From: Nicotiana tabacum
Taxonomy: Eukaryota > Streptophyta > Magnoliopsida > Solanales > Solanaceae
Reading direction: 5' to 3'
Length of the DNA stretch: 64,000 nucleotides
Assembly (NCBI RefSeq): GCF_000715075.1
Contig: NC_134087.1
Location: 129,757,518-129,821,517, forward strand
Each line of letters begins with the position of its first letter. The stretch's first letter is position 1. Below are positions 49,994-62,210 of this stretch, one piece after another. The notes under the pieces are model-generated. The model was not told where the DNA came from, ran no database searches, and worked only from the letters and a program-made list of their open reading frames with translations. A program made the position numbers and the translations under genes.

Positions 49994-50203
49994 CGTAACG
50001 ACTAAAAAAGAAGGAAATGAAATGCAGAGAAAGGAAAAGACTCAATTTTGTCTTTGAAAATAATCATAACATGTATTTAAAGAACAGGGGAAAAAGTGCA
50101 AAAAGCTAACTTTGGGGTAAAACATCAACGCAACAACTATTTTTGGGACTCAAGTGTAATTATTCTAAACTAGGGCCTATTTTCTTCATTTCCATTCGTT
50201 ACA
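49994..50203 (-). repeat. 3' LTR of the gene-carrying element
   Basis: It is 210 bp, with ends CGTAACG and CGTTACA. Relative to the other LTR, it lacks about 39 bp (partner 61960-61998) that include most of a hairpin, and another short stretch near 50053. A PPT, TAGGGGGATGGAA on the minus strand, lies next to it at 50204-50216. Confidence 0.9.
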
Positions 50204-50499
50204 TTCCATCCCCCTATAAAAACCTTTGTCCCTGCACTGGCTAGTTGCCTCTCTTGGCTTTGTAGTAACTTCCTGGCTCTTGAGGCATAAGCATCCTGAA
50301 AATGTCTCCAACAATATACAGACCAACTTCATGAATTGCTTGTAAAACCAAACACATTTGGATTATGATGCCTTCTTCGCGAGGAAGATCAACTTTCACT
50401 GAAAAAGTACATTATCCTCAAGGTTGGGAATAATACTACTACACAAAGTGTTTCTTCTAGTTGTGGATGCATAAGCTAATTGAGTACTACTTAACTCAT

Positions 50500-50754
50500 T
50501 TAATTCATCAGTCTCCCAGTTGCTTTGAAAAGGCTCAAATAGGCAAATAACTTATCTGATAGGACCCTGAAAGCATAATAAAAGGAAATCACTCCATAAA
50601 GGTCTTTGATGCATTCCAACTTGGCAGGTTTATGAGCCTTCAATGACTTCACAAAACTTGAAGTTAACCGGTAGTACTTCCAAAGTAGATCCTTCTTTGT
50701 TGTACATATCCCAATAGACACCTCCAAAATGCTATGATCCACAAGTAAGTCCAA
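50500..50754 (-). CDS. 84-residue ORF near the 3' end of the element, unknown
   Basis: The frame starts MDLLVDHSILEVSIGICTTK, shifted by one from the receiver-like frame, so it is likely the same coding region after an indel. It is Leu/Lys-rich, with YYRLTSSFVKSLKAHKPAKL and ISFYYAFRVL. I recognise no domain. It could be a further captured host fragment or original element sequence. Confidence 0.35.
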   Translation of the reverse strand: MDLLVDHSILEVSIGICTTKKDLLWKYYRLTSSFVKSLKAHKPAKLECIKDLYGVISFYYAFRVLSDKLFAYLSLFKATGRLMN

Positions 50755-50759
50755 ATTTG

Positions 50760-50828
50760 AATAATAATGGTAGCTCGGTCACAGTCAACACAAGGTTTAT
50801 CTGATGAGGCATTTCCTTCAGTATCTCC
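50760..50828 (-). pseudogene. Second half of the receiver-like fragment, beyond the copia insertion
   Basis: After removing the copia element and one copy of TCTCC, the frame continues AW-EILKEMPHQINLVLT and then ELP-FKFGL before a stop at about 50710. The motif DGLKAWEILK--PH-I-L-LTE-LP is the alpha-2/beta-3 region of pseudo-response regulators (PRR family) as I recall it. The phospho-accepting Asp equivalent is not preserved in that family either. The identity needs a search. Confidence 0.55.
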
Positions 50829-59818: not shown

Positions 59819-61567
59819 CTGCAAGGTCACGATCAAGTATTTTGAATACATAAAAGGAAGACCAAGTTTTAGAGCATCTAAAACATGTAGAATTTCAATT
59901 GATCCTCCTGGGGATAGAAGGTTTGTAATGCCTTCATTTTCAGGTTTCCAAAGAAGAGCAAGCACAGGCAGTGACTTAAAGCTTTGCACCACCATGCCAA
60001 GAAAATCAGATGACATTTTCTTCACATTCGTTCCCTGCCCAGTATCCAGCAAAATCCAAGCATTTATGCCAAAGTTATGATGAATCCACTTGATGTATTG
60101 GTCAATACCCTGAGTTGCCTTTATGTTCCTCATCTCTTCAAAATGGTCTGTCACTTTTGGAGCTCTAGTTTTATGAAAAACAACAAATAAAACTCCATTT
60201 GGAAGCTGGACACCAAGATAATGAACAATTTTTCCAAGTTCACCCTGCACCCTGTAAATACCTTTAGGCTTCAAGTAGTTAGGGGTGGTAGCATCTATCT
60301 TGTTGCAGCAGCAGCAGATACTTTCCTTGACACCAAGTGTAAAAGCAAGCAATGTACGCTCACATGTATGACCATCCTTGGAAATACCACCCTCAAAACC
60401 ACCATTGGTGGAGTCAATGATAAGGACGACACAGTCGGCTCCGGAGGTACCAACAATTATGTTCTTGATCAAGTTCCTGTGTTGAGGGGTATCAATCACA
60501 GTACAGTAGTATTTAGTGGTCTCGATTGTCCACAGAGCAATATCAGTAGTAATACCACGTTCTCGCTCTGCCTTGAGCTTGTTAAGCACCAAGGCATACC
60601 AGAATGGCCTCTTGTTCATCTCAGTAGCTTCTTTCTCAAACCTCTCAATAACACCCCGGTCAATAACACCAATGTATGCCAACCCTTTGTTGCTATCCAC
60701 AATAGGCTTCGATTCCAAATCCAGACCAAGTCCACTGGTGAGTTCCTCATAGCGATTTGGTTCCAAAACAGCCATAAGCAAACTTACAGGGCCACCAATA
60801 TTACTTACTAATTGAAGCCAATTTAATCCAGCTTCCTCATGTTGAGGACATTCATCGTCTTTTACTACAACCTCATTATCTTCAAAAGCAAAATCATTGT
60901 CATCTACAAGGTAATCGTCAATTCCATAAAAAACAGTGGACCCTTCATTAGAATCTGGTGGAACAACTCCAAAATTATCTCCTAAAAAGGTATCTTCAAG
61001 GAGTTCATCATTTCTCTTAAATTTCCCTATCTCAGAAGGCTCTAGATGGTCTTCGCAACAAAACGAAAGTAGAATCGACTCCTTATTGGCAAATTCAGTA
61101 GTCAAGTTAATATCATTTCTCCTAGGACTTCCATCGAACACATCTACCTCACCTTCAGGAATTAAAATCTCTTGAAAAAGCTGCCTAGCTATTTGAGTAC
61201 AGTTGTCAAACACCTCGTCTGCATTTTCACCTTCGATTCCCATGGTCAGGTTTTCGACCCAGTTCCCCATACTTGAATCGGATTGAATCCCCGACAAAAC
61301 GGCTCCTTCGTCCTCAATGTTTCCAGCTTCAAATTCATTCAAAATAAATGGAGTCTCAACACATGGGTAATCAATTTCCTGTATTTTGTTCTCAAATACC
61401 CATAACCAGACTTGAGCAAGTTCTGTAGCCCAGCGGCAGTCATGGACACCACCGAACCATCCCAAACTGAACATAATAGAAACCCGGATTTGTAATGTCA
61501 ACCTGATAAGCATATGGAACCTGAGGAGAGTACGGGCACGAGTCACCATGGTAATACTCAATGCCAT
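59804..61567 (-). CDS. 587-residue ORF with an EF-1alpha-derived G-domain fragment
   Basis: The first ATG (61567) is probably not the original start; the homologous frame begins near residue 36. Residues 70-245 are acidic and unrecognised. Residues 302-431 (60275-60664) clearly resemble the G domain of elongation factor 1-alpha: VIERFEKEA-EMNKR, LKAERERGIT-DIALW, ETTKYYCTVID, ADCVVLIIDS, GGFEGGISKDG, LLAFTLGVK and NKIDATTP. The nucleotide-binding P-loop is missing (VDSNKGLAYIGV in its place) and the DAPGH motif reads DTPQH, so GTPase activity is unlikely. Residues 432-583 match nothing I know. The last three residues and stop come from the hAT-like insertion: removing it joins this frame to 59038-58633 in frame. 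Confidence 0.8.
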   Translation of the reverse strand: MALSITMVTRARTLLRFHMLIRLTLQIRVSIMFSLGWFGGVHDCRWATELAQVWLWVFENKIQEIDYPCVETPFILNEFEAGNIEDEGAVLSGIQSDSSMGNWVENLTMGIEGENADEVFDNCTQIARQLFQEILIPEGEVDVFDGSPRRNDINLTTEFANKESILLSFCCEDHLEPSEIGKFKRNDELLEDTFLGDNFGVVPPDSNEGSTVFYGIDDYLVDDNDFAFEDNEVVVKDDECPQHEEAGLNWLQLVSNIGGPVSLLMAVLEPNRYEELTSGLGLDLESKPIVDSNKGLAYIGVIDRGVIERFEKEATEMNKRPFWYALVLNKLKAERERGITTDIALWTIETTKYYCTVIDTPQHRNLIKNIIVGTSGADCVVLIIDSTNGGFEGGISKDGHTCERTLLAFTLGVKESICCCCNKIDATTPNYLKPKGIYRVQGELGKIVHYLGVQLPNGVLFVVFHKTRAPKVTDHFEEMRNIKATQGIDQYIKWIHHNFGINAWILLDTGQGTNVKKMSSDFLGMVVQSFKSLPVLALLWKPENEGITNLLSPGGSIEILHVLDALKLGLPFMYSKYLIVTLQQVRS

Positions 61568-61950
61568 GGGGATTGGAACTCAGGTCTGGACTGTAATACG
61601 GATGAGAATAAGTGTATGCAAAAGGATTTTCATAGTAATGCTCAACCCTAGAGGATTCTCGATAACAATCTGTATTTTGTATCGGAATACTGATGATTTG
61701 CGTACGGGTCATCGGAAACCCGCTGCTCACTCTCCGGACTTTGAACCTCATGCTGATTTGATGAACTATGGAAGGTCCTGGATAGATGATGATATCGTTC
61801 TTCTAAATGCTGAATTTTTTTCTTCGATCTATCCATAAAAGCTTGGATCTGTTGCTCTAATTGATTTTGAGCTCCGCCAAAATTCATAGTTTTCTGTCTA
61901 TCTTCCATTAACATAGGTGAACAGCCGAGAATCGTAGGCTCTGATACCAA
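61440..61950 (-). pseudogene. N-terminal part of the element's ORF: coiled coil, frameshifted
   Basis: Directly after the PBS the frame carries MNFGGAQNQLEQQIQAFMDR and KKKIQHLEERYHHLSRTF, a short coiled coil, then an Asn/Ser/Gln-rich tail. It breaks near 61650, continues in a second frame rich in Tyr, Ser and Pro (YYENPFAYTYSHPYYSPD), and breaks again near 61450 into the long frame with GWFGGVHDCRWATELAQVW. I infer one original reading frame with two later frameshifts. It may stand in for gag; no family is recognised. Confidence 0.6.
61938..61950 (-). other. Primer binding site (initiator tRNA-Met type)
   Basis: The minus strand reads TTGGTATCAGAGCC one base after the LTR end. TGGTATCAGAGC is the initiator tRNA-Met complement used by most plant Ty1/copia elements. 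Confidence 0.9.
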
Positions 61951-61951
61951 T

Positions 61952-62210
61952 TGTAACGATTCCTATGTTGGAATCGTCATGAAAATGGAAAACAAGAACT
62001 AAAAAGAAAGGAAATGAAATGCAGAGAAAGGAAAAGACTCAATTTTCATTCAACATGTCTTTGAAAATAATCATAACAGGTATTTAAAGAACAGGGGAAA
62101 AAGTGCAAAAAGCTAACTTTGGGGTAAAACATCAACACAATAACTATTTTTGGGACTCAAGTGTAATTATTCTAAACTAGGGCCTATTTTCTTCATTTCC
62201 ATTCGTTACA
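61952..62210 (-). repeat. 5' LTR of the gene-carrying element
   Basis: It is 259 bp, bounded by TGTAACG and CGTTACA, a perfect terminal inverted repeat. An 8-bp stem (61956-61963 with 61970-61977) lies at its 3' end next to the PBS. The rest is nearly identical to 50002-50203. Confidence 0.9.

What the first reader, a model, noticed from the sequence alone, without database searches (positions are those of the whole stretch)
49994..62210. Non-autonomous LTR element whose single ORF joins an EF-1alpha fragment with a pseudo-response-regulator-like fragment
Seen: LTRs with perfect ends, TSD ACATA, a copia-type PBS and PPT, no recognisable pol, and a long minus-strand ORF with a coiled-coil start, an EF-1alpha-like G-domain piece (60275-60664) and a receiver-like piece (58633-58680 joined to 50760-50828). 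After removing two later insertions the frame runs through. Known: plant retroelements can capture transcripts. Inferred: two unrelated host genes were captured and fused in one mobile frame. Few elements are described with such a chimera.
Basis: partly seen in the sequence, partly recalled or inferred. Interest (0 to 1): 0.88.

Follow-up and report, generated by a model that had tools for sequence, protein, structure and literature searches.

The report
Mobile elements patched from host messages
A tobacco-type genome carries a family of small mobile elements whose long coding stretch is a changing patchwork of pieces copied from the plant's own spliced messenger RNAs; the window holds one copy, carrying a piece of translation factor EF-1alpha.

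Summary
The element is real: LTRs of 259 and 210 bp, TSD TATGT, PBS and PPT, interrupted by a copia and a hAT-like insertion whose empty sites exist in sister copies. The EF-1alpha piece is certain (137 codons, 75% identity) and lacks a host intron. The receiver (PRR) piece could not be confirmed, and this copy's frame is already broken near its start.

The larger finding: it is one member of a family. Of 20 related loci fetched from the same genome, 17 share the 5' module by blastn; subfamilies, and two Nicotiana attenuata proteins, carry different downstream patchworks (uL15/RPL27A, HMG-CoA reductase, 2-oxoglutarate dehydrogenase, serine carboxypeptidase, DUF7794). The youngest copies read 3.4-3.6 kb almost as one open frame (4 disruptions each, 36-42 in shuffles). 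Over ten dated copies, disruptions rise with LTR divergence from near zero.

Best reading: a trans-mobilised LTR lineage that repeatedly acquires spliced host mRNA pieces, probably by template switching, and may be kept translatable more than it is kept in sequence; that last step is only suggested by the data. Closest known: maize Bs1.

The parts
62211..62215 (-). target-site duplication TATGT (5' side of the element)
   Evidence: read directly
61952..62210 (-). 5' LTR, 259 bp, TGTAACG...CGTTACA
61938..61950 (-). primer binding site TTGGTATCAGAGC
   Evidence: read directly; exact TGGTATCAGAGC also in 11 of 20 related loci
61430..61936 (-). 5' coding module shared by the family (coiled coil, then Tyr/Pro-rich); in this copy 61950-59819 holds two frame disruptions
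   Evidence: blastn 72-82% to 17 of 20 related loci; disruptions
60674..61430 (-). acidic spacer, parts shared with L024, L029, L030, L031, L038, L039, L041, L043
60263..60673 (-). captured EF-1alpha piece, residues 31-166 of EF-1alpha, host intron absent
59819..60037 (-). captured RRP12-like HEAT piece (continues after the 772-bp insertion)
   Evidence: Pfam PF25772 E 0.003 here, 2.8e-6 in sister L024
59047..59818 (.). later 772-bp hAT-like insertion (type recalled from its CAGAGGCGG end and 8-bp TSD)
   Evidence: empty site in L024
58633..59046 (-). rest of the RRP12-like piece and following patchwork; no frame disruption
58633..58680 (-). receiver-like piece, left half (identity unproven)
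   Evidence: negative; resemblance to PRR recalled only
50829..58632 (-). later copia insertion, TSD GGAGA, gag-pol ORFs 53297-56392 and 52210-53292
   Evidence: empty site in L025 and L024
50760..50828 (-). receiver-like piece, right half (identity unproven)
   Evidence: negative
50216..50759 (-). 3' patchwork of unknown source, partly inverted in L024 and partly missing in L025
50204..50215 (-). polypurine tract AGGGGGATGGAA
   Evidence: read directly; similar tract before the 3' LTR of the dated loci
49994..50203 (-). 3' LTR, 210 bp, lacking about 45 bp near its end
49989..49993 (-). target-site duplication TATGT (3' side)
   Evidence: read directly

Best explanation
The window element belongs to a Nicotiana family of small LTR retroelements in which no gag-pol domain was found. 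Shown: LTRs, PBS and PPT; a shared 5' coding module; then, in different subfamilies, different patchworks of host coding pieces in the sense frame; host introns absent from two captured genes; relatives in N. attenuata and N. tomentosiformis besides the window's genome (its species is inferred). Inferred: the elements are copied by reverse transcriptase and integrase of an unknown partner; host mRNAs packaged with the element RNA are picked up by template switching; pieces that keep the downstream frame open survive because the element RNA must stay translatable (for example to escape nonsense-mediated decay or to make a protein from its 5' module), while most of the downstream amino-acid sequence matters little.
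For: EF-1alpha and RRP12-like in the window subfamily; 2-oxoglutarate dehydrogenase E1 in L042, PDB 1.3e-27; serine carboxypeptidase in L026, PDB 1.5e-9; HMG-CoA reductase in L034, Pfam 5.1e-8, and in N. attenuata protein P0123, PDB 4.8e-45; uL15/RPL27A residues 2-67 in P0122, PDB 9e-24, and uL15 in L042, 3.9e-22; DUF7794 in L030, 2.8e-42. Intron loss: EF-1alpha one, serine carboxypeptidase one firm and one resting on an 11-bp match. On-frame segments: 10 Pfam families at E<=0.01, best 2.8e-42, 107 segments from 15 of 20 loci; off-frame and antisense control: 3 families, best 0.0042, 150 of 154 segments. Open frame: L026 4 disruptions against 36.5 in shuffles, L042 4 against 41.8. Disruptions against LTR divergence in 10 copies: slope 43.5 +- 11.8 per kb, intercept 0.71 +- 0.68 per kb, r 0.79, p 0.006. 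L026 protein against L042: 369 codons, 195 amino-acid differences, no stop, neutral nonsense/missense ratio 0.07. P0123 is collinear with L034 over residues 1-924 of 979, 61-83% identical.
Against: Most patchwork residues have no identified host source (10 Pfam families in 13,553 scanned residues, three of them weaker than 1e-4 before allowing for 107 scans). The off-frame control segments are shorter on average than the on-frame ones. Stops are not depleted everywhere: P0121 against the 15 other loci gives 1594 differences and 39 stops (about 56 expected if half the change lies on the locus side), P0123 against L034 224 and 5, against L040 117 and 6, mixing change before and after insertion. 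dN/dS in the frame fewest in stops runs from 0.34 to 1.3 with one short pair at 3.2, and control frames overlap it. P0121-P0123 are annotated ORFs, stop-free by construction. No transcript, protein or mobilisation data. No partner element identified. Only 9 of 20 fetched loci plus the window were dated; the other 11 are not in the regression. The census is incomplete because the genome search was mostly unavailable.
Confidence: 0.8

Rival explanations
1. The patchwork protein is itself functional: a gag-like or RNA-binding protein in which captured pieces such as the uL15 rRNA-binding tail serve as domains, so amino-acid sequence is selected.
For: A uL15 piece is present in 9 of the 17 loci that match P0122, 8 of them with the 5' module, and has the lowest dN/dS in some pairs (0.34, 0.46). 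EF-1alpha piece against host: dS 0.52, dN 0.124, w 0.24, though host copies compared with each other show dN 0, so the host branch carries much of that constraint.
Against: The 5' module has w 0.71-0.98 in the three pairs compared (frame fewest in stops); uL15 was not found in 8 of the 17 loci, L027 among them, which has only 6 disruptions in 3.2 kb; downstream content is replaced between subfamilies.
Confidence: 0.25
2. The frames are open only because coding pieces were captured recently; there is no selection to keep them open.
For: Captured pieces are coding and start open; LTR divergence is low (K2P 0.018-0.099); stops against P0121 and P0123 in several loci are not clearly fewer than neutral.
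Against: L026 and L042 differ at 195 of 369 aligned codons without a stop in either, far more divergence than their LTRs show; P0123 keeps a 979-residue frame collinear with L034, though L034 has 5 stops against it.
Confidence: 0.2
3. Pieces were captured from genomic DNA (read-through transduction or double-strand-break repair) and not from mRNA.
For: Transduction is the route named for Bs1 and Rider in the review (PMC13317346, section 4 read).
Against: Three host intron positions in two genes of two subfamilies are absent from the element, two of them firmly.
Confidence: 0.05
4. A single odd element: one fusion of EF-1alpha and a pseudo-response regulator.
For: EF-1alpha piece certain.
Against: Other loci share the 5' module with other host genes; the PRR piece has no support.
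Confidence: 0.02

Closest known systems
Bs1 of maize (LTR element with three transduced host genes)
   Same: LTR element with several host gene pieces fused into a chimeric gene (review section); lack of pol in Bs1 is recalled
   Different: Bs1 is described there with one set of three genes; here subfamilies with a common 5' module carry different sets, with frames of about 1,000 codons, in two named Nicotiana species and the window's genome
LTR-captured genes of rice, sorghum and maize (PMC3726574, passages)
   Same: host genes inside full-length LTR elements
   Different: the passages seen list captured genes and single-gene examples; no family with exchangeable multi-gene patchworks appears in them
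TRIM and LARD elements
   Same: non-autonomous, PBS and PPT present
   Different: recalled: TRIMs are short and non-coding, LARDs have long LTRs and non-coding interiors; here LTRs are about 210-340 bp and interiors hold a long frame
Pack-MULEs and gene-carrying Helitrons
   Same: repeated capture of many host gene fragments by a mobile family
   Different: DNA elements (capture of genomic DNA with introns is recalled); here LTR ends, 5-bp TSDs and pieces without host introns

Membership tests
LTR retroelement (non-autonomous) | paired LTRs TG...CA with TSD | tested here: met
   window plus 9 of 20 loci have LTR pairs around the shared part; perfect 5-bp TSD in 5 of these 10 (window, L026, L034, L035, L038), one mismatch in L029 and L042, none seen in L024, L027, L030
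LTR retroelement (non-autonomous) | PBS after the 5' LTR and PPT before the 3' LTR | tested here: met
   exact TGGTATCAGAGC in 11 of 20 loci and in the window; PPT context
LTR retroelement (non-autonomous) | no gag-pol domains of its own | tested here: met
   no such Pfam family at E<=0.01 among 107 segments of 15 of 20 loci; the copia domains in the window lie in a later insertion
Bs1-like transducing element | several host gene pieces in one sense frame | tested here: met
   EF-1alpha and RRP12-like
Bs1-like transducing element | transcribed and translated chimera | not testable with these tools
   no expression data
Bs1-like transducing element | sequence descent from Bs1 | not tested
   Bs1 sequence not fetched; the three proteins returned for the 5' module are all Nicotiana
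retrogene or processed pseudogene (L1 type) | no LTRs, poly-A tail | tested here: not met
   LTRs, PBS, PPT present; a poly-A tail was not looked for
Pack-MULE / Helitron | DNA-element ends, host introns kept | tested here: not met
   LTR ends and pieces without host introns
PRR/receiver capture | significant match to a response-regulator receiver domain | tested here: inconclusive
   no Pfam or PDB match; host-gene protein search unanswered

The most novel reading that the evidence does not exclude
A retroelement lineage selected for having an open message rather than a particular protein: it needs translation of its RNA and refills its coding space with pieces of whatever host mRNA is co-packaged, so that nonsense changes are purged while missense changes are nearly free and host cargo turns over between subfamilies.
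Probability: 0.35. Interest if true: 0.88.

Novelty: new variant of a known kind. Interest (0 to 1): 0.74.

Why it matters
It turns a textbook rarity (Bs1) into a replicated natural experiment: many captures in one plant genus, datable by LTRs, from which the rules of host-mRNA capture, frame retention and exon shuffling by retroelements can be measured. It also explains some misnamed plant proteins: two N. attenuata proteins filed as ribosomal protein L27a-3 and HMG-CoA reductase 1 look like such chimeras.

Tried and rejected
PRR identity: tried by Pfam and PDB on the uninterrupted sister piece, without support; the host-gene protein search did not complete, so it stays open and not rejected. 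HSP70 in L035, suspected by eye, had no PDB match at E<=0.1 and no Pfam match and is not claimed. A relative of residues 8-296 of the window ORF: none but itself in the protein collection. dN/dS of close pairs is mixed (0.35 to 2.64 in frame 0 of the pairs between element copies) and largely post-insertion change, so not informative. The C22 match of the 3' patchwork (L048) gave no gene that I recognised; it was not scanned against a library. Structure prediction was not run: the 5' module is short coil plus low complexity and the alignment is shallow.
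Full report
What was checked. The finding describes a non-autonomous LTR element on the minus strand of 49994-62210. The LTR pair, TSD, PBS and PPT are there. The 5' LTR is 259 bp and the 3' LTR 210 bp; the 3' copy lacks about 45 bp and ends in CG, so 'perfect ends' is not right. LTR divergence is K2P 0.0251 over 203 columns with 5 mismatches, about 1 million years at the rate of 1.3e-8 per site per year used in that script (rate recalled).

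Later insertions. 50829-58632 is a copia element with gag, integrase and reverse transcriptase domains and TSD GGAGA. 59047-59818 is a 772-bp hAT-like element with an 8-bp TSD (type recalled from its CAGAGGCGG end). The flanks of each insertion, searched separately, are contiguous in sister copies: L025 and L024 for the copia site and L024 for the 772-bp site. The reading phase is continuous across both sites by arithmetic. I did not excise or join anything.

EF-1alpha. The 587-residue ORF 59804-61567 matches EF-1alpha in the PDB over residues 299-444 (E 8.8e-46), Pfam PF00009 at 8.3e-21, and tblastn with plant EF-1alpha P0093 gives 103 of 137 identical. Six host gene loci were compared (L003-L008): each has an intron near codon 155, the query matches the host exon up to that point and resumes beyond the intron, and the element is continuous. 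Against the host exon of L005, dS is 0.52 and dN 0.124 over 119 codons without a stop. Of the 16 places that the piece matches in the genome, one is the window, one is L024/L002 at 92%, and 14 lie at 81-83%; 6 of those 14 were examined as above.

Other pieces of the window element. Just after EF-1alpha lies an RRP12-like HEAT piece: 17.3 bits here, below the cutoff of 27, but 27.2 bits in L024, where it is not interrupted. A DNA search with the 3' part (50204-50828) found the window, pieces of the sister copies on C15 and C2, and three weak places (C22, C19, C17), none identified as a PRR gene; one of them, C22, was fetched. It remains possible but unproven. This copy is already broken near its start: 61950-59819 needs two frame disruptions, and after the receiver-like piece the frame meets a stop at 50734-50732.

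The family. The 5' part of the element (60665-61990) has 59 matches in the genome, with 40 of 67 candidates scored. I fetched 20 regions of 6.5-10 kb: 18 chosen from the upper and middle part of that list, not strictly by rank and with some skipped, plus the two sister places. By blastn, 17 of the 20 carry the 5' module; L024, L025 and L031 are linked by other parts. Of the 20, 9 have an LTR pair around the shared part that could be aligned; with the window that makes 10 dated copies, K2P 0.018-0.099. Exact PBS is present in 11 of 20 loci. Subfamilies share roughly the first kilobase and then diverge; downstream matches between subfamilies are few and patchy, for example L027-L035, L029/L030-L042, L031-L035. 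L026 itself is modular: positions 1-283 of its patchwork query recur at C15 and C23, positions 1049-2481 at C13.

Different cargo. L042 carries 2-oxoglutarate dehydrogenase E1 (1.3e-27) and DUF7794 (2.2e-26); L030 DUF7794 (2.8e-42); L026 serine carboxypeptidase (1.5e-9); L034 HMG-CoA reductase (5.1e-8). The 5' module of L026 found three proteins at E<=0.001 in a collection of 5.8 billion, all Nicotiana (one query, word-based search with length limits): P0121 of N. tomentosiformis, identical to L026 over 545 residues; P0122 of N. attenuata, 755 residues, named 60S ribosomal protein L27a-3; and P0123 of N. attenuata, 979 residues, named HMG-CoA reductase 1. P0122 indeed holds uL15 residues 2-67 (9e-24); L042 (3.9e-22) and P0123 (1e-17) match uL15 too. 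uL15 is present in 9 of the 17 loci that match P0122. P0123 holds HMG-CoA reductase (4.8e-45) and is collinear with L034 over residues 1-924 at 61-83% identity. The genome's size (4.0 Gb) and P0121 suggest N. tabacum; that is inference.

Spliced source. The serine carboxypeptidase piece of L026 was compared with a host gene stretch, L044. Element positions 96-182 and 192-274 of the query match host 837-923 and 1027-1108, so a host intron of about 100 bp is absent. An 11-bp exact match of positions 87-97 to host 166-176 (E 0.18 on its own) sits at a splice-site-like place and suggests that a second intron of about 660 bp is absent too. With EF-1alpha that is two firm and one probable intron absence, none retained, in two genes of two subfamilies. 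Other captured genes were not tested.

Frame. In the 10 dated copies the sense strand needs fewer disruptions than dinucleotide shuffles: L026 4 against 36.5, L042 4 against 41.8, L027 6 against 36.4, L034 9 against 37.4, L029 10 against 35.9, L038 11 against 32.4, L035 13 against 35.9, L030 14 against 36.9, L024 22 against 49.0, window 2 against 23.4 in its main stretch, 0 against 4.3 and 4 against 7.2 in the two others. The antisense strand lies closer to the shuffles (21-35 in the loci, 10, 4 and 9 in the window stretches). Disruptions per kb rise with LTR divergence, intercept 0.71 +- 0.68 per kb, r 0.79, p 0.006, n 10. The simplest reading is that the frames were close to intact when each copy inserted. 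Pfam scanning of 107 on-frame segments (40 residues or more) from 15 of the 20 loci (L032, L033, L036, L037, L043 left out) gave 10 families at E<=0.01: DUF7794, HMG-CoA reductase, EF-Tu GTPase, serine carboxypeptidase, two RRP12 models, E1 dehydrogenase, and more weakly S8e (2.1e-4), Prp18 (3.9e-4) and DUF7774 (0.0026). The control, 150 of 154 off-frame or antisense segments (55 residues or more), gave 3 families, best 0.0042. The control segments are shorter on average (11,184 residues in 154 against 13,553 in 107), which favours the on-frame set, though not by the many orders of magnitude seen.

Selection. Between the L026 protein and L042 the aligned part differs at 195 of 369 codons with no stop; the neutral ratio of nonsense to missense changes for this sequence is 0.07. 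Because L026 is represented by an annotated ORF, only the L042 side counts fully: about half of the differences, 7 nonsense changes expected, none seen. The wider picture is less clean. Over the 15 other loci compared with P0121 there are 1594 amino-acid differences and 39 stops (sums of the rows), where about 56 would be expected on the locus side; P0123 against L034 gives 224 and 5, against L040 117 and 6. Those counts mix change before and after insertion. dN/dS in the frame fewest in stops is 0.71-0.98 in the 5' module (3 pairs) and 0.34-0.78 in uL15 (5 pairs), and elsewhere 0.5 to 1.3 with one pair at 3.2; control frames overlap. This hints at weak constraint on sequence and some constraint on openness, but it is not a formal test.

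How it works, by step. Shown: LTR anatomy, host sequence without host introns, sense orientation and host frame of the recognised pieces, turnover of cargo between subfamilies, low LTR divergence. Inferred: copying by enzymes supplied in trans; acquisition by template switching between co-packaged RNAs; selection for translatability. Unknown: partner element, expression, product.

Known work. A 2026 review (PMC13317346, abstract and section 4 read) names Bs1 with three transduced host genes, a TRIM with a P450 piece, Rider, and template switching in Veju and BARE. [quoted passage not shown] Searches for a family such as this one listed none that I recognised from titles and abstract starts; the library holds open-licence papers only, so this is not proof of absence.

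Verdict.

Noticed in passing
P0122, P0123 (N. attenuata): Public proteins named 60S ribosomal protein L27a-3 and HMG-CoA reductase 1 look like chimeric retroelement ORFs of this family, probably named by their captured pieces.
   Followed up: yes
L024 (C15:44246361-44246658): Part of the 3' patchwork lies inverted relative to the rest in the sister copy, and a piece of the acidic region matches twice.
   Followed up: no
L032 and L033: Several copies of LTR plus 5' module lie close together on C24, as if tandem or recombined.
   Followed up: no
window 14862-15656: Reverse transcriptase and RNase H domains of another retroelement (RVT_1 8.9e-26).
   Followed up: no
L026 patchwork: Different parts of the patchwork recur at different places (C15/C23 against C13), which suggests recombination between elements.
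   Followed up: partly
L048 (C22:191716683) and C19:36922918: Weak matches (70%, 69%) of the 3' patchwork of the window element, with no gene that I recognised.
   Followed up: partly
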